From NCBI RefSeq assembly GCF_004795015.1, contig NZ_SSBI01000005.1:1-64000 (forward strand): a stretch of 64,000 nt of DNA. Reading direction: 5' to 3'. Positions 2,334 to 17,247 of the stretch are shown here, one piece after another. Position numbers and translations under genes: made by a program. The notes below the pieces were generated by a model. It saw only the letters and a program-made list of their open reading frames with translations. It was not told where the DNA came from and searched no databases. The stretch comes from Streptomyces sp. A1277. GTDB lineage: Bacteria > Actinomycetota > Actinomycetes > Streptomycetales > Streptomycetaceae. Each line of letters begins with the position of its first letter. Position 1 is the stretch's first letter.

Positions 2334-2409
2334 TGTAGGTTCCGCGATCCGGTGCGCACTGTAGCCGTGATATGCGCACCCGATGCGCAATTCCAGGGAT
2401 CTGTGCGCA
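2334..2409. repeat. tnsA-proximal transposon end with four TGCGCA transposase sites
   Basis: From the tip TGTAGG, TGCGCA occurs at 2353-2358, 2373-2378, 2384-2389 and 2404-2409, with start-to-start spacings of 20, 11 and 20 bp, close to whole helical turns. The first and last copies share the longer form GTGCGCACTG. Tn7's right end, also next to tnsA and the target gene, likewise has four closely packed TnsB sites. The array lies just upstream of tnsA, so bound transposase could repress the tns operon, as TnsB does in Tn7. The binding role is inferred. Confidence 0.82.
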
Positions 2410-2440
2410 CTGACTCCGCACGGTAACTAGCTTCCGACCT

Positions 2441-3193
2441 ATGGTCATTCCGATTCCAGCCCGGGTCCGCGGGAAGTACAAGCAGCCGATGGCGTCGGTG
2501 CGTTACGACGACGCGTCGGTGCGCCAGGTCCCGTTCAAGGATCTGCGGTTGGCGGATTTCACATGGTCGGTTCCATGGCGGAAGTTTCACTCCGTCCATG
2601 GCCAGGCGCACTACTCAGGGCGGTACGCGTCGGCAACTATGGCCGGCTTCGTGGTGTATGAGAGCCGCTTGGAGCTGGCACGGCTTCTCCTGGCCGACAT
2701 GGATCCTGCCGTGCGGGGGATCTATGCCCAGCCGTGTCACCTGACCGCTCGGGTAGGCGATCGGGTATGGCGGCACGTGCCGGACTTCCTGCTGATCATG
2801 GAGTCGGGAGCGGTGCGGGTGGTGAACGTCAAGCCTGCAGACCGACTCACGGACCACAAGATTGCGGAGGCGCTGGCTTGGCCGGGTGACCTGGTCGAAC
2901 GGCACGGTTGGGAGTACGAGATCTGGTCCGGGGCAGACCGGGTAGTCCTGGAGAACGTCCGGTTCCTCGCGGCCTACCGTCGCCCGGGCATGGTGCCGGA
3001 AGCCGAGATCGAGCGTGCTTGGGAAAGCGTGCAGGACGGTGATCGACTGGGTGTGGCCGAGCGACGGCTGGCAGCTGGACGCCCGGACCACGAGGCGCGA
3101 CCAGCGCTCTTGGCGCTGGTGTGGTCTGGGCGGCTGACCACTGATTTGTCCCGCCCGCTGAGTGGCGACTGGGTCCTGCGGAGGTCACTGTGA
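2441..3193 (+). CDS. tnsA: TnsA-like transposon endonuclease
   Basis: In Tn7-family elements TnsA cuts the 5' strands at the transposon ends while TnsB cuts the 3' strands, giving cut-and-paste movement. This 250-aa protein shows the TnsA nuclease pattern: glutamates in VVYESRLELA (Glu74/Glu78), Asp115 in HVPDFLL, and Lys131 in VNVK, where the family usually has Gln/Glu-x-Lys. A tail of about 100 residues follows, as in other TnsA proteins. It is the first gene of the tns operon and overlaps tnsB by four bases. ATG 2441 is used as start; ATG 2489 is an alternative, and neither has a strong ribosome site. The gene order supports the call as much as the motif does. Confidence 0.85.
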   Translation: MVIPIPARVRGKYKQPMASVRYDDASVRQVPFKDLRLADFTWSVPWRKFHSVHGQAHYSGRYASATMAGFVVYESRLELARLLLADMDPAVRGIYAQPCHLTARVGDRVWRHVPDFLLIMESGAVRVVNVKPADRLTDHKIAEALAWPGDLVERHGWEYEIWSGADRVVLENVRFLAAYRRPGMVPEAEIERAWESVQDGDRLGVAERRLAAGRPDHEARPALLALVWSGRLTTDLSRPLSGDWVLRRSL

Positions 3194-4833
3194 ACGCCTG
3201 GACAACGACTCTGCGGACTGGTCTGCCACTCATCTATGACGGCGAGCAGTTCACGATCGCGGAGATCGAGGGCCGCCGCATCCTCCTTCAGCACATGTCG
3301 GCAGAGGGCCGCCCCACGTGGCGACAGGTCGACTTGCCGGTGCTGCTGGCACACCCCTCTACCGAGTTCCTGGTGGAGACCTCACCTGCGGAGCCGGCGG
3401 CCGCAGCGTTGCTGGGCGGTCTCAGTAGTGCGGAGGACGACGCGCTCACCGTTCGGTTCCGGCATGTGCAGGAAGTTCGCTTCGGCTTTCAACTCGGTTC
3501 TTCCGAGTTGGCTTTGGAGGGTGAGCCACGGCCGGACTATGCGCCAGGGATGCCTTTGATGCATCGGTACCGGGCAAAGGCCACCGAGCTCGGCGTCGAC
3601 CCGGCAACGGTCCGCCGATGGGTGTCCAAGGTCGAGCGGGACGGGCCGGCCGGGCTGGTGAGCAAGCGCCAGCCCAAAGGCGTGCTGGACCGGGCCGATC
3701 CGCGCTGGTTGGAGATGGCACGCACGGTCATCGGGAGCCTGGAGAAGTCCAGCCGCCCGGTTCGTGGCCTGGTGCTGATGGAGATCGAAGAACGGCTGGC
3801 CAAGAAGTACGGCCGTGATGAGGTGAGCATTCCGAAGCAGACCACGGGCTATGCGCTGCTGAAGGAACTCGGTCGGGGGACGAACGCGTTCCAGGGCAGC
3901 ACGAAGGGGAAGCGGTCCATCGCGAACCGTCCTCAGGGGGTCTTCGGCAAGCTGCGGGCAACGCGACCGGGTGAGTACGTCGTGCTGGACACCAACAGCC
4001 TGGATGTCTTCGCAATGGAGCCGGTGACCTGCCGGTGGGTGCAGTGCGAACTCACCGTCGCCATGGACCTCTACAGCAAGGTGATCACCGGGTTGCGTCT
4101 GACGCCGGTATCGACGAAGTCGACCGACGTGGCCGGTGTCCTGTTCGAGACGATCCGACCGCGGGAGGTGCCGTCTGCTGGAACGGGCGAGCCGCTTCCG
4201 TACTGCGGGGTTCCTTCCACGGTGGTGTTCAACGCGGAGAAGCTGGTGGACGCGCACGGGCAGCCGCTGCTGCCCGCGGTCGCGGCGGAGACGATCATCT
4301 ATGACCACGGCCGGATCTACGTCTCGAACCACATCGCGAGCGTCAGCGCGAAGCTCGACATCTCGCTGCAGCCGGCTCGCCCCCATACGCCGACCGACAA
4401 GCCGGTGGAGCGGTGGTTCAAAACGTTGAACCAGGGGCTTCTGGCGGCGCTTCCCGGCTACAAAGGGCCGGACGTGCACAGCCGGGGCGAGAAGGTGGAG
4501 GACGAGGCGTACTTCTTCCTGGACGAGCTTGAGATGATCATTCGTGAGTGGATCACCTTGATCTATCACAGGCGGCACCACCGAGGTCTGACGGTCCCGG
4601 AGGTCCCGGGTCTGAAGCTGAGCCCGCTGGAGATGTTCGAGCACGGCGTGAACCGGGCGGGACCCTTGCGTATCCCGTCCAGGCCGGGCCTCGCGTTCGA
4701 GTTCCTGGAGGAGGAGTGGCGCCCCATCCACCACTACGGAGTGGAGATCAACGGGCTCCGCTACAACGGTGACGGGCTCGACGACTATCGCAACCGGATC
4801 AGCCCGCACCGCGGCGAGCACGCCGGAAAATGA
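3190..4833 (+). CDS. tnsB: TnsB-like DDE transposase
   Basis: Catalytic transposase that binds the repeated end sites and performs 3' cleavage and strand transfer. The 547-aa protein has an N-terminal half with a helix-turn-helix near residues 130-157 (ATELGVDPATVRRWV), then a retroviral-integrase-fold core with Asp267 in VVLDTNSLD, Asp372 in IYDHGRIYV and Glu407 in DKPVERWF. The last two are 35 positions apart, the classic DDE spacing. A Mu/TnsB-type C-terminal beta domain follows. All three acidic residues are present, so the enzyme looks active. It overlaps tnsA by four bases (GTGA) and is followed nine bases later by a small unknown gene. Its partners are TnsA (end cutting) and the TnsC ATPase. 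Confidence 0.93.
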   Translation: MNAWTTTLRTGLPLIYDGEQFTIAEIEGRRILLQHMSAEGRPTWRQVDLPVLLAHPSTEFLVETSPAEPAAAALLGGLSSAEDDALTVRFRHVQEVRFGFQLGSSELALEGEPRPDYAPGMPLMHRYRAKATELGVDPATVRRWVSKVERDGPAGLVSKRQPKGVLDRADPRWLEMARTVIGSLEKSSRPVRGLVLMEIEERLAKKYGRDEVSIPKQTTGYALLKELGRGTNAFQGSTKGKRSIANRPQGVFGKLRATRPGEYVVLDTNSLDVFAMEPVTCRWVQCELTVAMDLYSKVITGLRLTPVSTKSTDVAGVLFETIRPREVPSAGTGEPLPYCGVPSTVVFNAEKLVDAHGQPLLPAVAAETIIYDHGRIYVSNHIASVSAKLDISLQPARPHTPTDKPVERWFKTLNQGLLAALPGYKGPDVHSRGEKVEDEAYFFLDELEMIIREWITLIYHRRHHRGLTVPEVPGLKLSPLEMFEHGVNRAGPLRIPSRPGLAFEFLEEEWRPIHHYGVEINGLRYNGDGLDDYRNRISPHRGEHAGK

Positions 4834-4842
4834 CCCGTCGCC

Positions 4843-5373
4843 GTGGATCGCGCCGACATCAGGAAGATCTACTTCCAGGATCCGGAGCGGTCTCACCTGT
4901 GGCACACCCTGGACTGGGAGCACGCCCCGGCCCTGAACGGGCCGGCCAGCCTGGAGGCGTTGAAGTACGCGCGCCGGATCGCGGCCAAGACGCATCGTTT
5001 CCCGGACACCAAACGCGCCCTGATCGAGTTGCTGGAACGCTGGGGTGCCGGGCTGACCGTGGATCGGGCCGAGCGGCGCATGGCGGTGCGCTTGTCGCAG
5101 GACCGTCTGCGCCTGATGGGCGAAGACGGTTCCGGGGTCGACGAGATCGCCGAGCTCCCTTCCGTGCGCCGTCTGACAGAGCTCAGCTCGCCAAATGCGG
5201 GAACAGGCCGAAGGCAGGCACCCGATGTGCAGGTGGGGGTCGTGCCTGCAGATGAGGACCTGGGCGGGGACGACGACGAGGACGAGGAGTGCGAGGCAGC
5301 CCCGGCAGACGAGGAGACCGCGGGCCTGGTCGATGAGGATGAGTACTACGCCGACGTCTGGGAAAGCCGTTGA
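4843..5373 (+). CDS. Uncharacterised 176-aa protein between tnsB and tnsC
   Basis: Not a family I recognise. The first ~85 residues look helical and mixed in charge (WHTLDWEHAPALNG, RIAAKTHRFPDTKRALIELL). Residues ~135-176 are strongly acidic (DEDLGGDDDEDEECE) and probably disordered. The GTG start at 4843 lies nine bases after the tnsB stop, and its TGA overlaps the TTG start of tnsC, so it is translationally locked into the core operon rather than cargo. That placement implies a role in transposition, for example as an adaptor between TnsB and TnsC, a regulator, or a DNA mimic via its acidic tail. Those roles are inference only. Nothing in the reading frame looks broken. Confidence 0.75.
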   Translation: MDRADIRKIYFQDPERSHLWHTLDWEHAPALNGPASLEALKYARRIAAKTHRFPDTKRALIELLERWGAGLTVDRAERRMAVRLSQDRLRLMGEDGSGVDEIAELPSVRRLTELSSPNAGTGRRQAPDVQVGVVPADEDLGGDDDEDEECEAAPADEETAGLVDEDEYYADVWESR

Positions 5374-6503
5374 GTACGGCCGACCGCCCCGCGCCGTTCG
5401 AGGGCGACGACCGCCAGTACTCGCCCACCCGCCTCCCGGGCTGGCTGCAGGAGGTCAACGGCTCGGACCGGATCCAACCCCGGCAGCTCACCCGGGCCCA
5501 GCTCGCCGGACTGTCGCCGCGGGGTCTGCTGGTGGACAACGATGGCCGGGAGGTCTGGCACGCCAACCTCGGCCCCATCGACACCCCGCAGCTCCTGGCT
5601 CTGCACGCAGACCTGCGGGAGATCGTCGAGTCGAACCGGCAGGACGGCAGCAAGACCAAACCGGCCGCCCTGGTGGACGCTCACCCGGGCCTCGGCAAGA
5701 GCACGGCGGTGCGCGCGTACGGCTGTGACCTGTTCAAACGGCAGGTCAACCTGCGTGGGGACACCACCGCGGCCGGCGCACGCCGGGTGCCGGTCATCTA
5801 CATCGCGCTGAGCGGCAACACCCAGATCCGTGGCCTGAACGCGGCGATCTGCCGGTTCTACGGACTGCCCGTCAAGGGGGATGCGGACACCCTGGCCGAG
5901 CGGGCCGTGGACGCGGTCCTGTCGCTGAAGACGGTCGCCATGATCATCGATGACATCCACTTCCTGGCCGGTAACAAGTCCAACTCGATCCGCATGGCCA
6001 ACCAGCTCAAGTACCTCTCCAACGTCTTCCCCGTGACCCTCATCTACGTGGGGGTCGGCGTCCAGGAACGCGGCATTCTCCATGAGGGCTTCTCGCCGAG
6101 GGAGAGCCCGCTCGCGCAGTTCGGGCGCCGTACCACCGCGCTGACGTTGCTGCCCTTCCAGGTCGATGACGACGAGGGCCGCCTTCAGTGGCACCAGCTG
6201 CTCAAGACGGTCGAGCAGAAGCTCGTCCTGGCCGAGAAGTACCCCGGCATGCTCGCCGAGGACCTCTCGGACTACCTCTTCGCTCGCTCCACCGGCCACT
6301 TCGCCTCTCTCATGGCGCTCATCAACCGTGGCTGCCTGCGCGCGATCCGCAGCGGCCACGAGCGGCTGGATACGGAGCTGATGAACCAGGTGAAGAACGA
6401 CGCCGCGGCCGAGGAAGCCCGCCGGGAACTCCAGGCCGCGATCACAGCCGGTCTGCTGACCACCCGTCCCACCCGCCAAGCCGGCCGGAGGCGGTCGGCG
6501 TGA
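5370..6503 (+). CDS. tnsC: TnsC/TniB-like AAA+ ATPase
   Basis: ATP-dependent switch that links target selection by TnsD/TniQ to the TnsAB transposase and gives target immunity in Tn7. The 377-aa protein has a Walker A motif AHPGLGKST at residues 104-112 (Lys110), with the usual first glycine replaced, a Walker B MIIDDIHFL at 191-199, and a sensor-1-like strand TLIYVGVG near 223-230. An N-terminal extension of about 95 residues contains a TnsC-like HANLGPIDTPQ segment. Start is the TTG at 5370 overlapping the upstream stop (TTGA), and the 3' end overlaps tniQ (GTGA), so all five core genes are translationally coupled. The AAA+ assignment is certain; TnsC identity comes from gene order. Confidence 0.92.
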   Translation: MSTADRPAPFEGDDRQYSPTRLPGWLQEVNGSDRIQPRQLTRAQLAGLSPRGLLVDNDGREVWHANLGPIDTPQLLALHADLREIVESNRQDGSKTKPAALVDAHPGLGKSTAVRAYGCDLFKRQVNLRGDTTAAGARRVPVIYIALSGNTQIRGLNAAICRFYGLPVKGDADTLAERAVDAVLSLKTVAMIIDDIHFLAGNKSNSIRMANQLKYLSNVFPVTLIYVGVGVQERGILHEGFSPRESPLAQFGRRTTALTLLPFQVDDDEGRLQWHQLLKTVEQKLVLAEKYPGMLAEDLSDYLFARSTGHFASLMALINRGCLRAIRSGHERLDTELMNQVKNDAAAEEARRELQAAITAGLLTTRPTRQAGRRRSA

Positions 6504-9100
6504 CTCCATGGACCGACGAACGCATCCCTCTGTTCGTCGCGCCGTCCCCCGGGGAAGCCCTGGACAGCTGGCTTGAGCGCTACGCGCACCGCCTGAGAAC
6601 ACACACCGTGGACTTCGCCGACTACCTGGGGCTGCGGCACGCCTCCGTACGCAGAATGGTGCGCCGCCTCAACGACGACGAACGCGAACTTCTCCAGCGC
6701 CGCACCGGCATCACGGCCGAGCAGCTGAGCTCGATGACCCTGGAGCGGTTCGACGGCTCCCTCGTACGGATTGCCCCGCAGACTCGGCGCCTGACGGCGC
6801 CGGCCCGCTGGCGGTTCTACGGCACCACCTCGCGTTACTGCCCCGCCTGCCTGGCAGACGACCGGGGGCGGTGGCAGCTGCACTGGCGCCTCGGCTGGGC
6901 CTTCGCCTGCACGCGGCACAACCTGCTGCTCCTGGAGCACTGCCCGGCCTGCGGCAAGCACCCGCCGGTGGCCAGCGGCGGAAACCACCGCATGCTGCCC
7001 CACCCGGAAGCCTGCCGCGCCCTGACCGACCGGAGCGGGCGCGGGGCACGCTGCGGGTTCCCGCTGACGCAGGCTCCCGCGGTCGGCCTCAGTTCCGGCG
7101 GGGCGGTCCTGCTCGCCCAGGTCCATGTGGACGCGACGGTCATCGCCGATCACCACAGCCCTGCGGCGCTGGAGCGGGCCGGTGAGCTGTCACATCTGGG
7201 CCGCAGGGCTCTGCGCGGCATCCGCACCCGCCCCGAGGACGTCCCCGCCATCGCCCTGGACATCATCGACGCATGCGGCCGGGCCCTCAGCGGGGACGAG
7301 GCGTCGTGGGAGGTTCATGACACGCGAAACGTCGCCATCGGTACCACCCTGGCCACCATCGCCACCGACCCCGACCATTCGCTCAGAGAGGAGGTGTTCG
7401 CGTGGATGTGCCTCTCGCCCGAACAGGAGACCGGTGAACTGCGCGAGCATCCGACCCGGTATCTGCCCAACTGGAGGTCCGCAGGCCCCCGCGTGATCAA
7501 TCGCATCCTCGCCGCGTCCGACGGCCAGCTCACGCTCAAGGCCCGGCTGCGCTACGGCACAGCGACCGCCGAGCCCGCCGAGCCCTACCTGAGCGAGACC
7601 GACATCACCGTGCGGGCGTCCAAGACGCCCGGCATGCTCTGGCCGTCCTGGACGCTGCGGCTGCTGCCGCCCAAGAGCCCACACCAGCCGAGGATCGCGG
7701 GCCTGCGACGCGCCTGCGCAAGCCTCATGCTCATTCCCGGCGGCCCGGCCGGACACCGCCAGGCCGCCCGGATCATGGGCAATCCGCACTTCCGCAGCAA
7801 CCTGGAGGCCCTGCTGGCCTTCGTCAACGCCGACCACATCTGCAGCACGCTGACCCACTACGCGCGCGTCCTCGACGCGCACGAGGTACCGATCGACTAC
7901 GCACGCCGCCGAGCCCTGTTCGCCGACGAGACGACTCCGCTGCTCCTCGACGAAAACGCGCACTGGCGCCTCTGCAAGGGCCTGGGCACCCGGCAGTTCC
8001 AACAAGTCCACCTCTACCGGCTGCGCTGGCAGCTGCGGCGGCTACCACTCGGGGCCGACCCTCAGCTCGGCAACCACGCACCCGCCTGGACACACCGCTT
8101 CGCCTACCGGACGCACCCGAAGATCCTCGCCTTCCTCGACCAGCAGGCCCACCGCAACCTCGCCGCCCACCACGTCACCGACGAACCGGTGACGTGGGAG
8201 CCGCCAGGACACTGGCTCGACAACATCGCCTTGCCCCAACCGCCCATCGGAACGCCCACGGAGCACGTCCGGAACCTGCTGACCCCCGACTCCACCGCCC
8301 GCGACGTCGCCCGGACGCTCGGCCTCACGGTGCACCAACTGCGCCTGATGATGGAAAACCACCGCCTGAGCGCGCAGACCCGCCCGCACAACAAGGGCAA
8401 CTACCCCCGCCCGCCACGCCAGGGCTACCTGGTACCCGACAAACTGCGCGACCTCTACCAGCGGCAGGGCCTGCAGCAGCAGCAGATCGCCGAACTCGCC
8501 GGATGCACAACCTCGATCGTCAAGACCGCGCTGAAGCAGGCGAACATCCCGCTGCGACCCCACCGCGCACCGGGCGAACTGAAACGATCCGTCGCCCCGG
8601 CATGGCTACGCACCGAGTACCACGACAAAGGCAGAACGGTGGCCGACATCGCCCGCGAACTGGCCGCCCCCGACACCAACGTCTCCCAGCTTCTCGACGC
8701 GTGGCGCATTCCCCGCCATCCGGCCGGCCACAACGCACCTCCGGCCTGGCAACCGAGCCCCTTCGCCGAACTCGGCATCCCCCTGTCCAAGCCGATGGAG
8801 TACATCAGTACCCGCAAGGGCGGGACCGAATGGCTGCGCACCGCCCTCCTCATTCCCGGGCACCGTACGCGCCGCGCGGCCGCCCTCACCCTGGGCATCC
8901 CCCGCACCTCACTCAACGCGCGGCTGAAGATGCTGGAGACCGCCGCCGGATTTGAGATCTTCAATCACCGCACACGGCCCGTCGTCGCGACGCCGCGCGG
9001 CCGAGCGCTCCTCGAAGAAGCACAGAGGCTCTTCGACCGACTGGACCAGACACACGTAGAGCTCCCCGGCCGATCCTCTGCGAGAACGAGCCCGCCATAA
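6500..9100 (+). CDS. tniQ: TniQ/TnsD-family target selector with C-terminal LysR-type HTH
   Basis: TniQ/TnsD proteins bind the attachment site and recruit TnsC. The start used is GTG 6500, overlapping the tnsC stop, giving 866 residues, a TnsD-like size. The N-terminal TniQ domain has the expected zinc-binding set: Cys114, Cys117, Cys137, His140, Cys148 and Cys151 (YCPACLAD, FACTRHN, HCPACGK). The central and C-terminal parts carry several helix-turn-helix-like stretches (ARDVAR-LGLTVHQLR, QQQIAELAGCTTSIVKTAL, VADIAREL). The last ~80 residues read as a LysR-family winged HTH (TRRAAALTLGIPRTSLNARLK, LEEAQRLF). Serial DNA-binding modules fit recognition of an extended fixed site, here probably the 3' end of gap. 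Target identity is inferred from the insertion point. Confidence 0.9.
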   Translation: MTPWTDERIPLFVAPSPGEALDSWLERYAHRLRTHTVDFADYLGLRHASVRRMVRRLNDDERELLQRRTGITAEQLSSMTLERFDGSLVRIAPQTRRLTAPARWRFYGTTSRYCPACLADDRGRWQLHWRLGWAFACTRHNLLLLEHCPACGKHPPVASGGNHRMLPHPEACRALTDRSGRGARCGFPLTQAPAVGLSSGGAVLLAQVHVDATVIADHHSPAALERAGELSHLGRRALRGIRTRPEDVPAIALDIIDACGRALSGDEASWEVHDTRNVAIGTTLATIATDPDHSLREEVFAWMCLSPEQETGELREHPTRYLPNWRSAGPRVINRILAASDGQLTLKARLRYGTATAEPAEPYLSETDITVRASKTPGMLWPSWTLRLLPPKSPHQPRIAGLRRACASLMLIPGGPAGHRQAARIMGNPHFRSNLEALLAFVNADHICSTLTHYARVLDAHEVPIDYARRRALFADETTPLLLDENAHWRLCKGLGTRQFQQVHLYRLRWQLRRLPLGADPQLGNHAPAWTHRFAYRTHPKILAFLDQQAHRNLAAHHVTDEPVTWEPPGHWLDNIALPQPPIGTPTEHVRNLLTPDSTARDVARTLGLTVHQLRLMMENHRLSAQTRPHNKGNYPRPPRQGYLVPDKLRDLYQRQGLQQQQIAELAGCTTSIVKTALKQANIPLRPHRAPGELKRSVAPAWLRTEYHDKGRTVADIARELAAPDTNVSQLLDAWRIPRHPAGHNAPPAWQPSPFAELGIPLSKPMEYISTRKGGTEWLRTALLIPGHRTRRAAALTLGIPRTSLNARLKMLETAAGFEIFNHRTRPVVATPRGRALLEEAQRLFDRLDQTHVELPGRSSARTSPP

Positions 9101-9188: not shown

Positions 9189-9796
9189 TTACCAGGCCGC
9201 CTTGACGGTGTTGTAAGCGGTACGGCAGGCGGCGTCGGGGGCGGCGGTGGACAGATTCGTCATGGCTTCCCGCCAGACCTTCTTGGCGACCGTCTCCAGC
9301 TTCCGGCTCGCGGCAGGGATGTTGGGAGAGTACTTCTTGACCGATCCCATGGTGGCGACGGTGAACTTGTTGCACGCCGGGGCGGGAGCGTTCTGGAACC
9401 GGGCGTCGAGGTCCTTGGCCACGACGGGGCCGTTGGCGACAGCCCAGTTGTTCCAGGCGCTGCACGCGGTTTCGGTGAGCTCCGCCTGCTCGGCCTCGGT
9501 CAGGTGGCTCAGGGCGTTCAGCAGGGCGTTCCAGGGCTCGTCGGGGATGGTGTAGTGGGTGGTGGGGAACTTCTCGCTGGTTTTGAAGATGGCCTCCGTG
9601 CACGCCGGGGGCAGCGGGGCGGCGGCCTGCACCAGGGGGCTGCGGCAAGCATCTGAGAGGCTCCGGCCAAGTGCTGGGGAGCTGCCGTCGTCGGCTGGGC
9701 CGATGCGGTCACGGCCGGGGAGGAGGTGGCCAGGATGGCGGCTGAGGCTACTGCGGTGGCGAGCGCGGTGCGCTTGAGGATGCGGCGGTAGGCCAC
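9189..9796 (-). pseudogene. Frameshifted gene for a small secreted four-cysteine protein
   Basis: The ATG at 9796 opens a clear signal peptide (MAYRRILKRTALATAVASAA, then SSPAVTASAQ). After about 50 residues the frame runs into proline/arginine-rich shadow sequence. The remaining domain continues in another frame from about position 9640 (residues reading PLPPACTEAIFKTSEKF) to TAA at 9189. Restoring one C in a C-run near 9638-9642 joins the frames into a secreted protein of about 200 residues. The mature part has four cysteines (PACTEA, TACSAW, PACNKF, AACRTA), probably two disulphides. I do not recognise the family. It is the first cargo gene after tniQ, facing the core. The frameshift may be a real mutation or a homopolymer sequencing error. 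Confidence 0.62.
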
Positions 9797-9993
9797 GAAT
9801 GTACTCCTTGGTTACGAGGCGTGTGTGCGGGTTTGGGCGTAGCGGCCCGGTTGTGGAACGATCTCGGGCCGGTGCGGGAAACGGGCCACCGGTCGCCCCG
9901 TGATCGGCACAGTGGTTCGGGTGCCGCCGTCAGCGCTGGTGTCCGGTGAGCTGGTGACGTCTACCGGGGAGCGTCGTGCCCGTTCTCACGCCT

Positions 9994-10587
9994 TCAGCGC
10001 AGGGCGGTGAAGACGGATCCGCTGACGAGCGTCGACAGGAGGAATCCGACGACGACCTGGGCCGGAGTGTGGGCTTGGAGTTTCACTCGGGACCAGCCCG
10101 TCACCGCGATGAGCGGGAGGAGGGCGAGGGCCGGGAGCCCGTAAGCCAGAGCGAGGGTGGTGGCGGCTCCCGTGGCCACAGCCGTGTGAACGGAGATCTT
10201 CCATACGGTGGTGACGGTCAGGATGACCACAACCCCGGCGGTCATCGCGCCGATGAGTGCCGTGAGCTCGCTAGGTGCCTGCAATGCGTGCATCAGGGCG
10301 GTGCCGGTCAGAACGCAGGCCATGAGGGCGGGCAGGGCGGTGAGCCGGTCCTGGCGGTGGTGGAAGTGGGCGTCTGTCCAGAACCCGCGGCGCACTCCGA
10401 AGGCGATGAGCATCAAGGGCAGAACGATGGTGAAGAGGATCGCGAACAGGGACCAGCCGATGCCGACCAGACCATCGGCGTGCCAGCCCATGAGCAGGAT
10501 GACGAAGAGAGTCCAGTTCAACGGGCCGAACAGGTCACTGGCCAGTTCTGCGGAGCGCGAGCCGACAGAGGTGGTGGAGGTAGTCAA
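9994..10587 (-). CDS. PAP2-family membrane phosphatase
   Basis: Integral-membrane lipid or prenyl diphosphate phosphatase of the PAP2 superfamily. About six membrane helices are visible. The active-site motifs are present in a variant form: VWKISVHTAVA, corresponding to the central Ser-x-His motif, and WSRVKLQAHTPAQVVVG, corresponding to the C-terminal Ser-Arg...His motif. The start chosen is TTG at 10587 with a GGAG box six bases upstream; it gives 197 residues beginning just before the first helix. It lies downstream of the cis-prenyltransferase gene in the same direction, so a natural substrate would be that enzyme's prenyl diphosphate product. The pairing is inference from context. Confidence 0.8.
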   Translation of the reverse strand: MTTSTTSVGSRSAELASDLFGPLNWTLFVILLMGWHADGLVGIGWSLFAILFTIVLPLMLIAFGVRRGFWTDAHFHHRQDRLTALPALMACVLTGTALMHALQAPSELTALIGAMTAGVVVILTVTTVWKISVHTAVATGAATTLALAYGLPALALLPLIAVTGWSRVKLQAHTPAQVVVGFLLSTLVSGSVFTALR

Positions 10588-10790
10588 AGAGGGCTCCGGG
10601 CCGGTCTTCGTCGGGAAGTAGGGGATTTCGCGATCCGGATGTGCAGTGCACGGGTCTGTTGAGAACCGGCTGGGAAGCACGTCCCGTGGGCGGGCGTGGC
10701 GAGATGCCCGGCGCCTGCCTGGTCTGTCAGTCGCTCCGGTGCGGGTGGGCCATGCGGGACTGAATAGAGCGCGCGTCTGCTGGTGGCCGG

Positions 10791-11645
10791 TCAGTGCAGG
10801 GTGAGGGGTGTGGTGGCGCGCTGTTCGGGGAGGGCCTCGGTGGAGGCAGTTCCGTAGCGGCGCTGGCGGTTGTGATAGGACGCGACGGCCCGGGCCAGGT
10901 GTTCGGCGCGGAAGTCGGGCCACAGGACAGGCGAAAAGTACATTTCGGCGTAAGCCATCTGCCACAGCAGGAAGTTGGAGAGCCGGTGTTCGCCCGAGGT
11001 GCGGATGAGCAGGTCGACGTCGGGCAGGTCGGGTAGCTGCATGTGCTGGGCGAGGGTTTTCTCGTTCACGTCCTCTGCTGTGATGCCGGTGCCGATCAGG
11101 GAGCGGACGGCGTTGACCAGGTCCCGACGGCCGCCGTGGTTGAAGGCCGTGGTCAGCGTCATGCCGGTGTTGGCGGCCGTGAGTTCCTCGACCTGCATGA
11201 TGTCCTCGCGGAGGAAATCGGGGACTGGGGCATCCAGTGCGCCCAGATAGCGCATCCGCATACCCATGCTGCGCCAGCGTGGGGCGTTGTTGCGGATCAC
11301 GCGCTGGTTGAACCGCATCAGGTAGTCGACTTCCGGCTGAGGCCGGCGCCAGTTCTCGGTGGAGAACGCGAACAGGGTGAGCCACTTGATGCCCATGTCG
11401 TGGGCGGCCTGGACGGTGGCGGTGATCGCGGCCTCACCGGCGGAGTGCCCCTCGGTCCGCTCCAGGCCGCGCTGCTGTGCCCAGCGGCCGTTGCCGTCCA
11501 TGATGCATGCCACATGCGTAGGCGCGGGCTGGCCCGGTGCCGGGCTGGGCTGGCCGGGCGTGGACAGGTGTTCCCTTGGGGCAGCAAGGTCATGGCCAGG
11601 GGTCGTCTGTTGGGATGGTGTTTGTGGCCCCGAGGCGGAAATCAC
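10791..11645 (-). CDS. Undecaprenyl-diphosphate-synthase-like cis-prenyltransferase
   Basis: Condenses isopentenyl diphosphate units onto an allylic diphosphate in cis configuration. Family hallmarks are intact: HVACIMDGNGRWAQQRG with the catalytic Asp50, ENWRRP, FNHGGRRDL and RTSGEHRLSNFLLWQ. The start is GTG 11645, seven bases after an AGGAG box, giving 284 residues with a proline/glutamine-rich 40-residue leader before the catalytic domain. Housekeeping uppS is expected elsewhere in the genome; this copy is transposon cargo between a P450 and a PAP2 phosphatase. It therefore probably makes a specialised prenyl chain for modification and export rather than cell-wall carrier lipid, although a resistance or backup carrier-lipid role is not excluded. 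Confidence 0.92.
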   Translation of the reverse strand: MISASGPQTPSQQTTPGHDLAAPREHLSTPGQPSPAPGQPAPTHVACIMDGNGRWAQQRGLERTEGHSAGEAAITATVQAAHDMGIKWLTLFAFSTENWRRPQPEVDYLMRFNQRVIRNNAPRWRSMGMRMRYLGALDAPVPDFLREDIMQVEELTAANTGMTLTTAFNHGGRRDLVNAVRSLIGTGITAEDVNEKTLAQHMQLPDLPDVDLLIRTSGEHRLSNFLLWQMAYAEMYFSPVLWPDFRAEHLARAVASYHNRQRRYGTASTEALPEQRATTPLTLH

Positions 11646-11830
11646 GGCATTCTCCTGGAGTTGGAGCGGAGGGGAAGCAGAGAGGTGACAGAGAGGCGGT
11701 GGTAGGTGCCCTCTCAGGCAGTGACATGGCACCACTCCTGCAAACGACTCATCGGGCCACTGGACACGTAACGAGATACGACAATCACGAGACGAGTAGG
11801 CCGCTCGTCAAGCCCGGGCGCCTGCGGCGC

Positions 11831-13213
11831 CTAAGAAGTGAGCCGGTGTTCCGGGGTCATCGGCAGGGGGCCGGGGGAGAGGAAGATGCGGGGCGTCGGC
11901 CGGCGGATTCGGTGGCCGGGCCGCGGGCGCAGGTGCCATTGGGTGCTGAGGGTGGCCAGGGCGGTCAGCATGTGGGTCATGGCGAGGTTGTCGCCGATGC
12001 ATTTGCGCGGCCCTGTCCCCAGGGCCAGGTAGGAGGAGGGGGCGAGGGTCTTGGCGCGTTCGGGCAGCCAGCGGTCTGGGTCACAGACCTCCGGGTCGGG
12101 GTAGACCTGGGGGTTGCGGTGCAGTTCGTAGGGGCTGAAGGCGATTTCCGCGCCGGCGGGCAGGTGGGCGTCGCCCAGCTGGACGGGGACGAGGGTGCGG
12201 CGCGCGAGAATCCACACCGGCGGGTACAGGCGCAGTACTTCCTGCAGGAGCCGCCGTGTGTAGTCGAGGCGGGGCAGGTCCTCGGGCTGGACGGGACGCC
12301 CGGCGAGGACGGTGTCGAGTTCGTCGTGGAGGCGCTGCTCGATATGCGGGTTGAGGGCCAGTTCATGGAAGGTGTGGGGCAGGGCGTCGCTGAGGGCGTG
12401 GACCGCGGCGAAGAGGTAGAAGATGACCTCGCGGACGATCTGGGCGTCCTCCAGGGGCTCGTCCGTGTCGGCGTAGCGGGTTGCCAGGAGCTGGGAGAGG
12501 ACGTCCGGGGTGTCCTGGTCGCCGGTGGTGCGGCGGTGCTGGATCGAGGCGGTGATTGCCTGTTGCAGGCGGGTTCGGGCCTTATTGAAGGCTCCGGTGC
12601 CCGGGACGTGGGAGAGGTACGCCATGCGGGGCAGGGCTAGACGCCAGTACAGGCCGCGGGTGACCTGCGGGAGAAGGTCGGCCAGGGCGTCGGCCACCGC
12701 ATGGGCGGTGGGCCCCTCACCACAGAGGGTGCGGGCGTTGACCGTGCAGGCCAACCGTTTAAGCTCCTGGTCTACGCGCACGGTCTGTCCGGGCTGCCAC
12801 CGAGCGATCTGCGTCCGGGTGGCTTCGCGGACGGTGTGAGTCTGAGCTGCGATGCGGGGCCGGCGGAATCCGGACTGGACGGTGCGGCGGTGACGGCGGT
12901 GGGATTCAAAGAGCGTCAGCCCCTCGAACTGCATGTCCATCCCCACGCTGGAGCCGAACTGCGAGCCGATCCCTTCCGACAGCCGGCCTTGGGAGTAGTC
13001 ACGTGTTTCGGTCACCAGGATGCGGTGGAGCAGTTCGGGCGAGGTGACCATGTAGACATCGGGGCCGGGGCCCAGCAGGCGGACCACGGGGCCGTGTTGG
13101 TGGAGTGAGGCGGTGAAGGCCAGCGGCCTGATCAGCATGTGGTGTCCGTGGCCGATCAGCGGCAGGGCGCCCGGAGCGGTCGGGACAGGGCGGGCGGTGG
13201 CTGGGGTGGTCAT
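11831..13213 (-). CDS. Cytochrome P450 with atypical I-helix
   Basis: Haem monooxygenase of 460 residues. Visible motifs are the K-helix ExxR (EVLR, residues 325-328), the PERF-like DRWLPERA, and the haem loop LGTGPRKCIG with proximal Cys405. The I-helix normally has Ala/Gly-Gly-x-Asp/Glu-Thr-Thr, but here residues 269-276 read AAVHALSD, so both the conserved glycine and the acid/threonine pair used in proton delivery are replaced. Start ATG 13213 has a GAGGA site. It is the first gene of the minus-strand cargo operon, upstream of the cis-prenyltransferase, and shares a divergent promoter region with the ABC exporter genes. A prenyl or terpenoid substrate is likely from context; the I-helix change hints at unusual chemistry. 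Confidence 0.93.
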   Translation of the reverse strand: MTTPATARPVPTAPGALPLIGHGHHMLIRPLAFTASLHQHGPVVRLLGPGPDVYMVTSPELLHRILVTETRDYSQGRLSEGIGSQFGSSVGMDMQFEGLTLFESHRRHRRTVQSGFRRPRIAAQTHTVREATRTQIARWQPGQTVRVDQELKRLACTVNARTLCGEGPTAHAVADALADLLPQVTRGLYWRLALPRMAYLSHVPGTGAFNKARTRLQQAITASIQHRRTTGDQDTPDVLSQLLATRYADTDEPLEDAQIVREVIFYLFAAVHALSDALPHTFHELALNPHIEQRLHDELDTVLAGRPVQPEDLPRLDYTRRLLQEVLRLYPPVWILARRTLVPVQLGDAHLPAGAEIAFSPYELHRNPQVYPDPEVCDPDRWLPERAKTLAPSSYLALGTGPRKCIGDNLAMTHMLTALATLSTQWHLRPRPGHRIRRPTPRIFLSPGPLPMTPEHRLTS

Positions 13214-13247
13214 GGGTCCTCGTCGTTGACGCCAAATGGACTATCAC

Positions 13248-13287: not shown

Positions 13288-13359
13288 TTGTTCTGCCCCG
13301 TTACCGTTGCCGCCCGCTGTACTGCGGCATTGCGCCTCCGCGGGCCTGCAAGGACAGCG

Positions 13360-14037
13360 ATGAGCGGGAGCGATCCGGTCCTGCGCGTACGGGACGTGCA
13401 CAAGAGCTACCGCCGCCGGAAGGTACTCGAAGGAGTGAACTTCGACCTGCCCCCGGGACAGCTGACGGGCATCGTCGGTGAGAACGGCGCGGGCAAGAGC
13501 ACCCTGCTGCGCATCCTGATCGGTGACCTCCCCCTGGACCACGGTTCGGTGCAGTCCCAGGGCGTCATGGGGTACTGCCCCCAGGAAACCGTCCTGCACG
13601 AGGCGTTCACCGTCGTACAGCACCTGCGGTTCTTGCAGACCGCCTACGCCCTGGACACCCTGGACCGGGCGCACGAAGTGCTGGAGATCCTGCACTGCAC
13701 CGACTACCTCAACGACCGCATCGCCACGCTCAGCGGCGGCACCCGCCAAAAACTCAACCTCACCCTCGCCCTGATGCACGGCCCGCAGGTGCTGCTCCTG
13801 GACGAGCCGTACCAGGGCTTCGACTGGGAGACCTACCTGCGCTTCTGGGACCTCGCACAGGATCTGCGGGACCGCGGCTGCTCCGTGCTGGTCGTCTCCC
13901 ACCTCGCCTACGACGCCTCCCGCCTGGACCGCATGTACCGCCTGCACAACGGCGTCCTGGTGGAGAGCGAGCGCACCGGCGTAAGCCCCGCACACGCCGC
14001 GACAAACCCCGCCAGCACGAGCGGGGTGCGGTCATGA
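13360..14037 (+). CDS. ABC transporter ATP-binding protein
   Basis: Nucleotide-binding subunit of a two-gene exporter, 225 residues. Walker A is GENGAGKST, the signature region is LSGGTRQKLNL, Walker B is VLLLDEP, followed by the switch histidine in VVSHLAYD. The start is ATG 13360, preceded by AAGGAC. Earlier in-frame starts would add an unlikely 24-residue leader. It overlaps the permease gene by four bases. The Q-loop reads YCPQETVLHE. ABC-2-type pairs like this usually export lipids, drugs or natural products, so it may secrete the product of the adjacent cis-prenyltransferase/P450 genes or give self-resistance. Confidence 0.93.
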   Translation: MSGSDPVLRVRDVHKSYRRRKVLEGVNFDLPPGQLTGIVGENGAGKSTLLRILIGDLPLDHGSVQSQGVMGYCPQETVLHEAFTVVQHLRFLQTAYALDTLDRAHEVLEILHCTDYLNDRIATLSGGTRQKLNLTLALMHGPQVLLLDEPYQGFDWETYLRFWDLAQDLRDRGCSVLVVSHLAYDASRLDRMYRLHNGVLVESERTGVSPAHAATNPASTSGVRS

Positions 14038-14948
14038 GGCGCTGGATGTCCTGCCTGACGGATGCCGTGCGGTTCGCCGTGATCGAGCAGCTGCGCAACC
14101 GGCTCGCGCTGCTGCTCGTGCTGTTCTTCGTCCCCTTGTGGATCACCTTGGGGTACAAGGTGATGGCCGACGATCCGGTGCGCTTCTTCGTCCGGCCCGC
14201 CGACCGGTCGATCACGATGGACGGCAACGTCATCACCCAGATGTCCGGGGCGCTGCACTCCCTCGCTCTGATCGTCGGCTTCATGATGTTCCTCGCCACC
14301 GCCCGCTCGGCCGCCTTCGACCGGCGCCTGGTGATGGCCGGCTATCCGAGACTGTGCCTGGCGCTGGCGAAGTTCACCGCCCTCGTGCTGGCCGCCGCCG
14401 TCGTCGCCGCCTACGGAGCGGTGTGGATGCGCATGTTCTGGGTTCCACAGCAGCTGTTCCTGCTGGCCGTCGGATTGTTCATGGGGGCACTGATCTACGG
14501 CGGGATCGGTGTCATGCTCGCCGCCGTGCTGCGCAGTGAACTGGCCGGCATGTTCCTCGTAATCATGGTCAGTTTCGTTGACCTGTCCCTGCAGAACCCG
14601 ATCGCCAACCCGGCCGCCGACAGCCCTCTGCTGCGCTACTTCCCGGCCTACGGTGCCATGCAGACCGTCGTCACCGCCGGAGGGCTGAACATCGTCCCCT
14701 GGCAGGAGCTCGCCATGGGCGTGCTGTGGGCTCTCGGCATGGTCGCAGCCGGCATGACGGCCTTCGCCGTACGCAGCCGCTCACACCGCACCACCGGCTC
14801 CGTGGTGGTCGCGCCCGTGCACAGCGTGGGCAGCCCCGGACTGGCTGTCCTTGCCGCCGGATCCAGGTCCGTCAGCGGTCCCCGCGGCGTCCCTTCCGAC
14901 CAACGGCCGGCAGATCAGTGCAACCGCCGCGATTCCCCTACCGGATAA
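14034..14948 (+). CDS. ABC-2 type transporter permease
   Basis: Membrane partner of the preceding ATPase; start ATG 14034 overlaps the ATPase stop. About six hydrophobic segments are visible (LALLLVLFFVPLWITLGY, LALIVGFMMFLATA, AALVVA-type helices, FLLAVGLFMGALIYGGIG, FLVIMVSFVDLSL, MGVLWALGMVAAGMTAFAV). The order of cytoplasmic start, long first external loop and C-terminal LQNPIANP segment is typical of ABC-2 permeases. The last ~55 residues are a polar tail without obvious domain. The GMC oxidoreductase gene starts eight bases downstream, so export and oxidation genes are co-transcribed. Confidence 0.88.
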   Translation: MRRWMSCLTDAVRFAVIEQLRNRLALLLVLFFVPLWITLGYKVMADDPVRFFVRPADRSITMDGNVITQMSGALHSLALIVGFMMFLATARSAAFDRRLVMAGYPRLCLALAKFTALVLAAAVVAAYGAVWMRMFWVPQQLFLLAVGLFMGALIYGGIGVMLAAVLRSELAGMFLVIMVSFVDLSLQNPIANPAADSPLLRYFPAYGAMQTVVTAGGLNIVPWQELAMGVLWALGMVAAGMTAFAVRSRSHRTTGSVVVAPVHSVGSPGLAVLAAGSRSVSGPRGVPSDQRPADQCNRRDSPTG

Positions 14949-14956
14949 GGCTCACC

Positions 14957-16867
14957 ATGCCCAAGCCCCCAGGGACGGAGCCTGCCGCGTACAACGTCCT
15001 GGTGATCGGCTCCGGATTCGGCGGAAGCGTCGCCGCGCTGCGCCTGGCCGAGAAGGGGTACACCGTCACCGTCATCGAAGCCGGACGCCGCTTCGCCGAC
15101 GAGGACTTCGCCACCTCACCCTGGCAACTCGGGCGCCTGCTGTGGGCTCCCCGGCTGGGATTGCACGGCATCATGCGGGTCCACCTGCGGCGCCGGCTCC
15201 TGGCCCTGACCGGGGTAGGGGTTGGCGGAGGATCACTGGCCTACGCCGCGGTCCACTACCGCCCCGCCCCCGAGGCATTCGGCGCAGAAGGCTGGGACCC
15301 GGCGGTCGACTGGGCCACCGAACTCGTCCCACACTACGACGAGGCCGAGCGCATGCTCGGAACAACGACCGCCCCCGGGATGTCGGCGGGGGACCTGCTG
15401 TTGCAAAAGACCGCCGTCGAGCTCGGGGTGGGAGCGACCTTCCACCACACCCGGGTCGGCATCCGCTTCGGACCGCCCGGTCAGTCGACCGGTGACCCGT
15501 ACTTCGCCGGACAGGGGCCCGCCAGGAAGGGCTGCACCCAGTGCGGGCAGTGCACCAGCGGCTGCCCCACCGGTGCGAAGAACACCCTGACCAAGAACTA
15601 TCTCCACCTGGCCGAACGCGCGGGCGTCAAAATCCGTCCGCTGACCACCGCCGTCGCCCTGCACCCGCAGCCGGATGGAACCTGGCAGGTCCAGACCCTG
15701 CGTACCGTGCTCGACCACGGAATCCCGCGCCGCAGACGCGAGGTCCTGACAGCCGGCGAAGTGGTACTGGCCGCCGGCGCGTGGGGCACCACCGAACTGC
15801 TCCACCGCTCCCGGCCCCACCTGCCCCTACTCTCGCCCGCCCTGGGCACCCGGACCTGTACCAACCGCGAAGTGATCACCGCCGCCTCCGCACCCGGTTT
15901 CGACACCGGCCCCGGCCCCGCCATCACCTCCGCCATCCGCCCCACCCCCACCACCCTCCTCCAGCTGTGCCGCGTCGGCCCTGGCACCCACCCCCTCGCC
16001 GCAGCGCTTCGGCCCTTCCCCCTGCCGTTCCGCGCCTTCGGCCGGCGCACCGCACTGCTGTTCACCATGGAACTGCGGAACTCCGCCCTCACCAGCCACT
16101 ACCGGCCCCGGCTCTTCGGCAGACGGCTCGTCTTCCGCCCCGGCACCATCCGCCCGGAACCCGTCCGCAGCCCCAGCGCAGAAACCGTCACGCGCACGTA
16201 CGCGGCGGCCATCCGAGGCCGTGCCCGCCGCCTGTGGACGACACTGCTCCGGGTGCCGGTCACCGCCCACCTGATGGGCGGCTGCCCCCTCGGCACCGAT
16301 CCCGCCCACAGCGTCGCCGACCCCTACCACCGCGTGCACGGCTACCCGACCCTGCACGTCACTGACGCCTCCGCGATCCCCGGAAACCTGGGACATAACC
16401 CGTCGCTGACCATCACCGCCATGGCCGAACGCGCCCTCGATGCCTGGCCCCTGGCCGGCGCCCGCGACCTCCGACCGCACCAGGACGAGCCCTACCGCTC
16501 CCTAACCCCGCTGAAAGCACCGACCGTCCCATGCCAAACCACCCGTTCATCGTCCACCTCGGCCGCACCCGCCTCTTCACCCGCATCGCCCCCCGCCTGC
16601 TGCCGGCCTGCGACCTCGCCGTCCACCGCCTCACCCGCGGCCGCCTGCTCCCCAGCCGCCTGTTCATCACCACCGTCATCCTCCACACCACCGGCCACCG
16701 CACCGGCGCGGCCCGCACCACCCCTCTCTGCGCCCACCACAGCCCCGACGGCAGCTGGCTCGTCATCGCCAGCAACTTCGGCAAACCCCGCCACCCCGCC
16801 TGGAGCACCAACCTCCTCCACACCCCCACCGCCAGGATCACCACCGGCAGGCATTCCCACGACGTGA
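14957..16867 (+). CDS. GMC-family FAD oxidoreductase (cholesterol-oxidase-like) with lost stop codon
   Basis: Flavin-dependent oxidase/dehydrogenase. The FAD Rossmann motif VIGSGFGGSVAA starts at residue 16. A cysteine cluster CTQCGQCTSGCPTGAKNT, typical of this GMC subgroup, lies near residues 194-211. The C-terminal block HVTDASAIPGNLGHNPSLT carries the catalytic-region histidine/asparagine. Start ATG 14957 follows AAGG. The normal family end, a short tail after ALDAWPL ending near PYRSLTPL, is reached at about 16510, but no in-frame stop occurs until 16865-16867. The frame therefore runs 337 bp across the next gene as low-complexity sequence. A TAA at 16503-16505 in the +1 frame suggests a one-base indel removed the natural end. 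Likely substrate: a prenyl alcohol or P450 product, by context. Confidence 0.85.
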   Translation: MPKPPGTEPAAYNVLVIGSGFGGSVAALRLAEKGYTVTVIEAGRRFADEDFATSPWQLGRLLWAPRLGLHGIMRVHLRRRLLALTGVGVGGGSLAYAAVHYRPAPEAFGAEGWDPAVDWATELVPHYDEAERMLGTTTAPGMSAGDLLLQKTAVELGVGATFHHTRVGIRFGPPGQSTGDPYFAGQGPARKGCTQCGQCTSGCPTGAKNTLTKNYLHLAERAGVKIRPLTTAVALHPQPDGTWQVQTLRTVLDHGIPRRRREVLTAGEVVLAAGAWGTTELLHRSRPHLPLLSPALGTRTCTNREVITAASAPGFDTGPGPAITSAIRPTPTTLLQLCRVGPGTHPLAAALRPFPLPFRAFGRRTALLFTMELRNSALTSHYRPRLFGRRLVFRPGTIRPEPVRSPSAETVTRTYAAAIRGRARRLWTTLLRVPVTAHLMGGCPLGTDPAHSVADPYHRVHGYPTLHVTDASAIPGNLGHNPSLTITAMAERALDAWPLAGARDLRPHQDEPYRSLTPLKAPTVPCQTTRSSSTSAAPASSPASPPACCRPATSPSTASPAAACSPAACSSPPSSSTPPATAPARPAPPLSAPTTAPTAAGSSSPATSANPATPPGAPTSSTPPPPGSPPAGIPTT

Positions 16868-17001
16868 CCGCCCGGCTGCTGAGCCCCGAGGAGAAGTCAG
16901 CCCACCGCCACCGCATCCTCGCCGCCCTGCCCGTCTACGACACCTACAACGCCCGCACCACCCGCGACATCCGCGTCTTCCACCTCACGCTCAGCCGCTA
17001 A
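16531..17001 (+). CDS. Nitroreductase/deazaflavin (F420)-dependent-type reductase
   Basis: A 156-residue protein of the Ddn-like split-beta-barrel family, recognised by LHTTGHRTGAARTTPL, SWLVIASNFGKPRHPAW and a C-terminal RDIRVFHL. These enzymes use F420 or FMN to reduce activated double bonds or quinones. ATG 16531 sits inside the run-on end of the GMC frame, in a different frame. It is the last gene of the plus-strand cargo operon and lies 204 bp from the transposon tip. A role in saturating a prenyl/terpenoid intermediate would fit the neighbours; cofactor choice cannot be settled from sequence here. Confidence 0.8.
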   Translation: MPNHPFIVHLGRTRLFTRIAPRLLPACDLAVHRLTRGRLLPSRLFITTVILHTTGHRTGAARTTPLCAHHSPDGSWLVIASNFGKPRHPAWSTNLLHTPTARITTGRHSHDVTARLLSPEEKSAHRHRILAALPVYDTYNARTTRDIRVFHLTLSR

Positions 17002-17114
17002 CGGACCTTCTCGGCCAAGACGCTAGGGAGCCCGAACGGGCGTCGATCCGAACCACCACAGTGCCAAGGCCCGCTACCGGCAGTGACTACGCCAGCGGGC
17101 CAGATGGGAGATTC

Positions 17115-17205
17115 TGCTCATGATCACCGGATAGGACCGGTGCTCATCCGACACGGAATCGCTAATCCCGCAGGAAGCAATGCTCATGAAGCTGCGCTCC
17201 CTACA
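17115..17205. repeat. Distal transposon end with three TGCTCA transposase sites
   Basis: Reading inward from the tip CCTACA (17200-17205), TGCTCA occurs at 17181-17186, 17141-17146 and 17115-17120, that is 19, 59 and 85 bp from the end. The first is at exactly the same distance as the first TGCGCA at the other end, and the motifs differ by one base. Three spaced sites at the tnsA-distal end match the design of Tn7's left end. Binding is inferred; the spacing match is directly visible. Confidence 0.8.
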
Positions 17206-17210: not shown

Positions 17211-17211
17211 A

Positions 17212-17244: not shown

Positions 17245-17247
17245 CTT

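What the first reader, a model, noticed from the sequence alone, without database searches (positions are those of the whole stretch)
2334..17205. Complete Tn7-like transposon with exact ends, target duplication and full core
Both tips (TGTAGG/CCTACA), a 5-bp direct repeat GGACG outside them, four plus three transposase-type sites placed at matching distance from the tips, and a coupled tnsA-tnsB-orf-tnsC-tniQ operon are all visible. Intact DDE, nuclease, ATPase and zinc motifs suggest a working element. Defined Tn7-like elements in Streptomyces with this cargo are not something I recall seeing described.
Basis: partly seen in the sequence, partly recalled or inferred. Interest (0 to 1): 0.93.

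Follow-up and report, generated by a model that had tools for sequence, protein, structure and literature searches.

The report
Stalled Tn7-like transposon beside gap gene
A 14.9-kb mobile element related to Tn7 sits right behind a sugar-metabolism gene (gap) in a Streptomyces genome, with exact ends and a duplicated 5-bp target; its transposase gene carries a stop codon that related copies lack, so this copy is likely stalled, while its family appears to swap a protein that is predicted to choose the landing gene.

Summary
In detail: window 2334-17205 (14,872 bp) has matching tips, a GGACG target duplication, four plus three regularly placed repeats, and tnsA-tnsB-tnsC-tniQ. At least 9 of 392 genomes of the genus have the uninterrupted site; the closest has one GGACG and then the hairpin. 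Twelve other elements show exact 5-bp duplications. Two claims fail. The extra 'orf' is the cut-off end of tnsB: an in-frame TGA at 4831-4833 splits a frame that is open in 12 of 13 relatives compared (one not comparable) and in a near-identical database protein, so this copy is probably not autonomous. And the kind is known: a survey reports an actinobacterial Tn7-like clade, none tested (passages). New here is targeting: related elements recur at five gene classes, and TniQ and TnsC similarity follows the target better than TnsB does. Three elements sit 6-8 bp after the gap stop codon. The window copy is an exception: its TniQ groups with those of elements at a glycosyltransferase gene that this host lacks. 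How it reached gap is unresolved.

The parts
882..2327 (+). gap, glyceraldehyde-3-phosphate dehydrogenase; the element begins 6 bp after its stop codon
   Evidence: NF006139 760 bits; distance
2329..2333 (.). left copy of the target duplication GGACG
2334..2339 (.). left tip TGTAGG
2353..2409 (+). left-end repeats TGCGCA at 2353, 2373, 2384 and 2404 (putative TnsB sites)
   Evidence: binding not tested
2441..3193 (+). tnsA, endonuclease subunit
   Evidence: NF033179 230.8 bits, cut-off 110
3190..4833 (+). tnsB up to the in-frame TGA at 4831-4833 (547 codons)
   Evidence: relatives open there
   Evidence: same frame; 179 of 179 residues equal to P0123
5370..6503 (+). tnsC, AAA+ regulator
   Evidence: Pfam TniB and AAA_22
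6500..9100 (+). tniQ/tnsD, 866 aa, predicted target selector with N-terminal TniQ domain and C-terminal LysR-type winged helix
   Evidence: Pfam TniQ and HTH_1; model and fold matches
9192..9797 (-). cargo: small secreted-like protein, frame probably disrupted
   Evidence: 65% to S. humidus element protein over residues 59-202; frames
9994..10590 (-). cargo: PAP2-type phosphatase
   Evidence: Pfam PAP2
10791..11735 (-). cargo: cis-prenyl diphosphate synthase
11831..13213 (-). cargo: cytochrome P450
13360..14037 (+). cargo: ABC transporter ATPase
14034..14948 (+). cargo: ABC-2 type membrane protein (weak match, under cut-off)
14957..16534 (+). cargo: GMC oxidoreductase
16531..17001 (+). cargo: F420-dependent reductase family
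17115..17186 (-). right-end repeats TGAGCA at 17181-17186, 17141-17146 and 17115-17120 (putative TnsB sites)
17200..17205 (.). right tip CCTACA
17206..17210 (.). right copy of the target duplication GGACG
17212..17244 (+). hairpin (terminator-like) next to the insertion, kept in the empty site of G214
   Evidence: -37.9 kcal/mol for 17206-17260, z -5.0
17248..19452 (-). convergent EF-G-like gene, right neighbour
   Evidence: TIGR00484 780 bits

Best explanation
This is a 14,872-bp Tn7-like transposon inserted 6 bp after the stop codon of gap, with a 5-bp target duplication; it was likely placed there by cut-and-paste transposition through TnsA and TnsB, with TnsC likely linking them to a target protein of the TniQ/TnsD type, and it is probably stalled now because tnsB carries an in-frame stop codon. 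Shown by sequence: ends, duplication, uninterrupted site elsewhere, four-gene core, stop codon, family relationships. Inferred: TnsB binds the 6-bp repeats; TnsA and TnsB cut the element out; TniQ binds the 3' end of a host gene through its helix-turn-helix and winged-helix parts and recruits TnsC; insertion falls a fixed distance downstream so that the gene stays intact. Across the family TnsC and TniQ seem to be exchanged together between TnsAB cores, which would change the target. For the window copy, selector and site do not fit that pattern: its TniQ belongs with those at a glycosyltransferase gene, while gap is used by another TniQ group. I favour a recent change of specificity or help from a gap-type TniQ of another element, and cannot choose between them.
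For: Ends, duplication and repeats. Uninterrupted gap/EF-G site in at least 9 of 392 genomes, one GGACG in the closest. Of 21 loci with a left end (own included; inner elements of tandem rows not counted), 16 have a right end and 13 of these an exact 5-bp duplication. Elements in G250 and G321 lie 8 bp after the gap stop in the same orientation. In three glycosyltransferase insertions the tip is 34, 35 and 34 nt from the same conserved codons. The nearest relative by TniQ C-terminal half shares the target in 12 of 15 elements (10 of 15 by whole TniQ), by TnsC in 11 of 14, TnsA 7 of 14, TnsB 6 of 14. Stop codon: 12 of 13 relatives compared are open, one not comparable; the position is invariant in the 46 TnsB proteins aligned (45 of 120 listed homologues plus S. 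microflavus); P0123 is full length and equals the window's two pieces but for one residue and the stop position. TniQ fold.
Against: The window copy itself breaks the TniQ-target rule; so does G413, and S. humidus, whose TniQ is 85% like the window's in the C-terminal half, sits at neither gene. Hosts of the four nearest relatives (S. microflavus, S. globisporus, S. humidus, G152) have a gap site without element, so this TniQ group does not routinely use gap. gap and glycosyltransferase flanks show no similarity above chance, and no residue is shared by the three gap TniQ alone. Left and right repeats differ by one base. No mobility was tested, and the stop could be an assembly error. The p values ignore shared ancestry (TnsB p 0.04, TnsA p 0.02 also differ from shuffles). 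The end profiles were trained on members of the same set, own included. Three of 16 loci with both ends lack an exact 5-bp duplication (G250, G315, G255).
Confidence: 0.82

Rival explanations
1. The element is fully working as it stands: the tnsB C-terminal part is made as a separate protein by restarting at the GTG 9 nt after the stop, or by reading through it, and the two halves act together.
For: A GTG follows the stop by 9 nt in frame and the downstream frame is open to 5373 with no further damage.
Against: None of the 12 comparable relatives has the stop, the GTG is an ordinary codon in most of them, and the break falls inside the predicted C-terminal barrel.
Confidence: 0.1
2. The stop codon (and the cargo frame break) are assembly errors and the strain carries an intact element.
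For: A near-identical full-length protein is in the database; the genome is in 115 contigs.
Against: The window's TniQ differs from P0002 in five residues and has a unique proline at 516, which fits real divergence of this copy.
Confidence: 0.15
3. A gap-type TniQ (as in G321 or G250) from another element placed this element at gap in trans, using its ends and its TnsAB.
For: gap is the site of the G250/G321 TniQ group (64% alike) and the window's TniQ is in another group; rows of related elements show that several meet in one cell.
Against: No gap-group TniQ was found in the window's genome (only its own and a distant fragment); spacing is 6 bp, not 8, after the stop.
Confidence: 0.35
4. TniQ (with TnsC) was exchanged by recombination after the insertion, so the present selector is not the one that chose gap.
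For: TnsC-TniQ and TnsAB have different relatives in other elements: window and S. globisporus TnsB 69% but TniQ 78%, window and G152 TnsB 97% but TniQ 58-59%.
Against: Window and S. humidus agree over the whole core (DNA 91% from the left tip to 9025), with no break between tnsB and tnsC seen.
Confidence: 0.15

Closest known systems
Actinobacterial clade of Tn7-like transposons (Benler et al. 2021, PMC8649781; passages read)
   Same: Actinobacterial hosts, Tn7-type core, subterminal repeat arrays at both ends. The text says none of that clade had been characterised experimentally.
   Different: 'glyceraldehyde' and 'streptomyces' do not occur in its main text. Whether this very element is in its tables could not be tested (supplements not available).
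Escherichia coli Tn7 with TnsD (PMC2918618, abstract read)
   Same: TnsABC plus TnsD, insertion just downstream of a conserved gene; N-terminal TniQ/TnsD fold shared.
   Different: gap instead of glmS; C-terminal LysR-type winged helix; TnsE not looked for; tnsB interrupted.
Elements of S. humidus, S. microflavus and S. globisporus (L054, L053, L055)
   Same: Same kind of ends and core; TniQ 86, 83 and 77-79% identical; S. humidus shares four kinds of cargo gene.
   Different: Inserted at a glycosyltransferase 3' end (S. microflavus, S. globisporus) or at no recognised gene (S. humidus); tnsB open; S. globisporus tniQ has a frame change.
Tn7706 of Rhodococcus erythropolis (PMC12915292, one passage read)
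   Same: Named actinobacterial Tn7-like transposon with tnsA, tnsB, tniQ and tniB.
   Different: Other genus; sequences not compared here.
6.7-kb transposase segment of Streptomyces rimosus (PMC9045324, passages read)
   Same: TnsA-like and Mu-type genes are named for a 6.7-kb stretch, close to the smallest full cores here (6,858-6,940 bp); a 6.7-kb segment is reported as moved from chromosome to plasmid in strain M4018.
   Different: Not compared by sequence; that both passages mean one element, and that it belongs to this subfamily, is my guess.

Membership tests
Tn7-like transposon | TnsA-type endonuclease gene | tested here: met
   NF033179 230.8 bits over cut-off 110; Pfam TnsA_N 24.1, just under its 26.5
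Tn7-like transposon | TnsB-type DDE transposase (homology) | tested here: met
   67-97% identical to TnsB of the 11 compared elements that have exact duplications; PHROG transposase match
Tn7-like transposon | uninterrupted TnsB in this copy | tested here: not met
   in-frame TGA 4831-4833
Tn7-like transposon | TnsC-type AAA+ regulator | tested here: met
   Pfam TniB and AAA_22 above cut-off
Tn7-like transposon | TniQ/TnsD target-selection protein | tested here: met
Tn7-like transposon | arrays of transposase-site repeats at both ends | tested here: met
   four left, three right, first at +20 on both; binding itself not tested
Tn7-like transposon | 5-bp target duplication | tested here: met
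   GGACG here; 13 of 16 loci with both ends, own included
Tn7-like transposon | preferred site, transposase end towards the target gene | tested here: met
   three elements 6-8 bp after the gap stop, same orientation; the window's TniQ group does not match the site
Tn7-like transposon | transposition in vivo | not testable with these tools
   needs an assay
Tn7 itself | TnsE second selector | not tested
   no TnsE search made
CRISPR-associated transposon | cas genes or CRISPR array inside the element | tested here: not met
   no repeat array in 2334-17205 at 22 nt or longer; 7 of 8 cargo ORFs scanned give no Cas match in PADLOC

The most novel reading that the evidence does not exclude
Streptomyces Tn7-like elements form a naturally re-aimable system: a common TnsA-TnsB core with fixed end spacing picks up interchangeable TnsC-TniQ cassettes, each TniQ carrying a chain of helix-turn-helix units that ends in a LysR-type head and reads the coding end of a particular host gene (gap, a glycosyltransferase, ABC exporters, BTAD regulators, a methyltransferase). 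The window element is a snapshot of re-aiming: a glycosyltransferase-type selector found at the gap site.
Probability: 0.4. Interest if true: 0.75.

Novelty: new member of a known kind. Interest (0 to 1): 0.52.

Why it matters
It gives exact ends, an uninterrupted site and target genes for a group of Tn7-like elements that a 2021 survey called experimentally uncharacterised. If the TnsC-TniQ exchange is real, close pairs with the same TnsAB but different TniQ would show which part of TniQ picks the target, which bears on site-specific insertion tools for Streptomyces, with the gap 3' end as one landing site. For the window copy the practical message is a caution: a core that looked complete to the eye was not intact.

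Tried and rejected
Rejected: a separate fifth core gene (same frame as tnsB). Rejected: stop-codon readthrough as a trait of the family (none of the 12 comparable relatives has the stop). Rejected: that this TniQ group routinely uses gap (the four hosts of its nearest relatives that I looked at have a gap site without element). Looked for and not found: residues shared only by the three gap TniQ (0 columns); similarity between gap and glycosyltransferase flanks; the right end in the three named relatives by DNA search (one search gave only short weak hits, one of which led to the S. humidus right end); right ends at the S. microflavus, G321, G441, F8 and G361 loci within the DNA held; Rfam families other than one tRNA. 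Foldseek alone gave no match to the TniQ model below E 0.001. The TnsB model was poor as a whole (mean pLDDT 56), so only its region of about 510-630 is used. Rows dropped before counts: G181 (no left end); G315 at the stop; G028 (no TniQ matched) and N829 (no TnsB matched) in parts; loci without a recognised target. Not followed: most of the 149 of 392 genomes with a TnsA match (13 besides the window's were fetched) and most of the 117 plasmid records (6 fetched).
Full report
What is there. The element runs from 2334 to 17205 (14,872 bp). Its tips are TGTAGG and CCTACA, and GGACG stands directly outside both. Inside the left tip TGCGCA occurs at +20, +40, +51 and +71; inside the right tip TGAGCA occurs at +20, +60 and +86. 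Away from the ends no 100-bp stretch of the window has three or more TG[AC]GCA (0 of 63,402 sliding positions on each strand). The element begins 6 bp after the stop codon of gap. On its other side lie a strong hairpin (-37.9 kcal/mol, z -5.0) and a convergent EF-G-like gene.

Uninterrupted site. A 400-bp query made of the two flanks with one GGACG matched end to end in at least 9 of 392 genomes of the genus, at 81-96% identity (its match list is cut, so 9 is a lower bound). In the closest, G214, the sequence after the gap stop reads CGGACG and then the hairpin (the junction was printed for 4 of the 9, the other 5 missed my search pattern, and only G214 has the GGACG). G214 has gap (98%) and the EF-G gene (93%) next to each other.

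The core. TnsA, TnsC and TniQ have clear family matches. Thirteen relatives were compared there: 12 read straight through and one (G315) is too disrupted to compare. The position is invariant in the 46 proteins of alignment A2. Three annotated plasmid relatives have a four-gene core with one tnsB of 724-729 codons. A database protein without shown source, P0123, equals the window's two pieces except for one residue and the stop position, so open copies of nearly this same tnsB exist. In the S. microflavus protein the break falls inside a weakly matched Mu-type C-terminal domain (505-565), and the model is fairly confident there though poor as a whole. Losing this part probably removes function, because in relatives of Tn7 the TnsB C-terminus contacts TnsC (recalled; an entry titled 'TnsBctd-TnsC-TniQ complex' is listed). 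The window's TniQ also has a proline at 516, where the 12 other aligned rows have leucine (11) or valine (1).

Relatives. One scan of genome contigs with TniQ gave three named relatives: S. microflavus, S. humidus and S. globisporus. Six plasmid records were added from 117 with a match. In all, 21 loci have a left end, own included, inner elements of tandem rows not counted. Sixteen have a right end, and 13 of these show an exact 5-bp duplication: own, S. humidus, S. globisporus, G152, G413, G028, G184, G197, S. clavuligerus, S. scopuliridis, NBC_01454, NBC_01435 and NBC_00829. G250 (8-nt repeat), G315 (6-nt offset repeat) and G255 (none) do not. For G152 and S. clavuligerus the duplication flanks a tandem row.

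Targets. Left flanks fall into classes: gap 3' end (own, G250, G321), a family-2 glycosyltransferase 3' end (S. microflavus, S. globisporus, G152), ABC exporter 3' end (S. clavuligerus, S. scopuliridis, NBC_01435, G413, G028), BTAD-type regulator 3' end (G441, G255, NBC_00829) and a methyltransferase coding region (G197, F8). The glycosyltransferase and ABC names have Pfam support for one member each; the F8 neighbour is annotated as an L11 methyltransferase; the BTAD name is my reading of translations. G361 lies in an ABC gene but at another place; S. humidus, G184, G315 and NBC_01454 have no recognised target. A pattern for gap next to a left tip hit 2 of 392 genomes, G250 and G321; with the window, three such sites are known here.

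Who follows the target. The nearest relative by TniQ C-terminal half shares the target in 12 of 15 classified elements (label shuffles, p 0.0001), by whole TniQ in 10 of 15 (p 0.0006), by TnsC in 11 of 14, by TnsA in 7 of 14 (p 0.02), by TnsB in 6 of 14 (p 0.04). Examples: window and G152 TnsB are 97% alike, their TniQ 58-59%; window and S. globisporus TnsB are 69%, their TniQ 78%. This suggests that TnsC and TniQ move together between cores. The misses for the C-terminal half are the window, S. microflavus (whose nearest is the window) and G413. The p values ignore shared ancestry.

The odd one out. The window's TniQ (87% S. microflavus, 85% S. humidus in the C-terminal half) belongs to the glycosyltransferase group, yet it sits at gap. 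Its genome has no match to that glycosyltransferase at E 0.001, nor has S. humidus; S. microflavus, S. globisporus, G152 and G250 have it, G321 and G214 show only weak partial matches, G413 and G441 none (10 genomes). But S. humidus did not go to gap, and the gap sites of S. microflavus, S. globisporus, S. humidus and G152 carry no element. The two flank types share nothing above chance, and no TniQ residue is shared by the three gap elements alone. Landing within 2 bp of the site used by another TniQ group is hardly chance (6 against 8 bp after the stop). Either specificity changed, or a gap-type TniQ helped in trans, or TniQ was exchanged after insertion. I cannot decide.

Cargo. PAP2 phosphatase, cis-prenyl diphosphate synthase, P450, ABC ATPase with a membrane protein, GMC oxidoreductase, F420-type reductase and a small secreted-like protein. 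The S. humidus element has relatives of four of these (ABC 57%, membrane protein 48%, synthase 41%, secreted 65%). A lipid or terpenoid pathway with export is a guess, no more.

What is known. A survey reports an actinobacterial clade of Tn7-like transposons, uncharacterised (PMC8649781, passages). Target selectors were surveyed in PMC10293859 (passages), whose main text has no hit for 'glyceraldehyde' or 'LysR'. In seven paper searches no title or start of abstract shown names gap as a Tn7-like site; most listed papers were not opened and supplements could not be read, so tables may hold these elements.

Noticed in passing
G152 (loci L098-L099): Four related elements head to tail behind the glycosyltransferase gene, 5-7 nt apart, the whole row flanked by ACGAA; S. 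clavuligerus pCLA1 (L133) and G250 (L106, at gap) show shorter rows. Target immunity seems weak.
   Followed up: partly
L134, about 15258-26733: In S. scopuliridis the element lies at the 3' end of an ABC transporter gene annotated beside asparagine synthase and lasso peptide B2 genes, i.e. in a peptide biosynthesis cluster.
   Followed up: no
G413 (L100-L101), element flanks: About 23 bp of the ABC gene end are present on both sides of the element, more than the 5-bp duplication explains.
   Followed up: no
window genome, contigs C29 (L140) and C39 (L139): C29 holds another, distant TnsA-TnsB-TnsC set; C39 holds a TnsC-like and short TniQ pair.
   Followed up: partly
window 2353-2409 and 17115-17186: Left repeats are all TGCGCA, right repeats all TGAGCA; the S. 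humidus and G152 ends show nearly the same split, so mixed ends may work together or be a relic of recombination in tandem rows.
   Followed up: partly
G250 (L106), about 5900-7400: tnsC and tniQ run together in one frame, as after an internal deletion, in the gap-located element.
   Followed up: no
L053, 1500-4600: Upstream of the S. microflavus element lie ORFs that look like a Tn554-type recombinase set (recalled, not searched).
   Followed up: no
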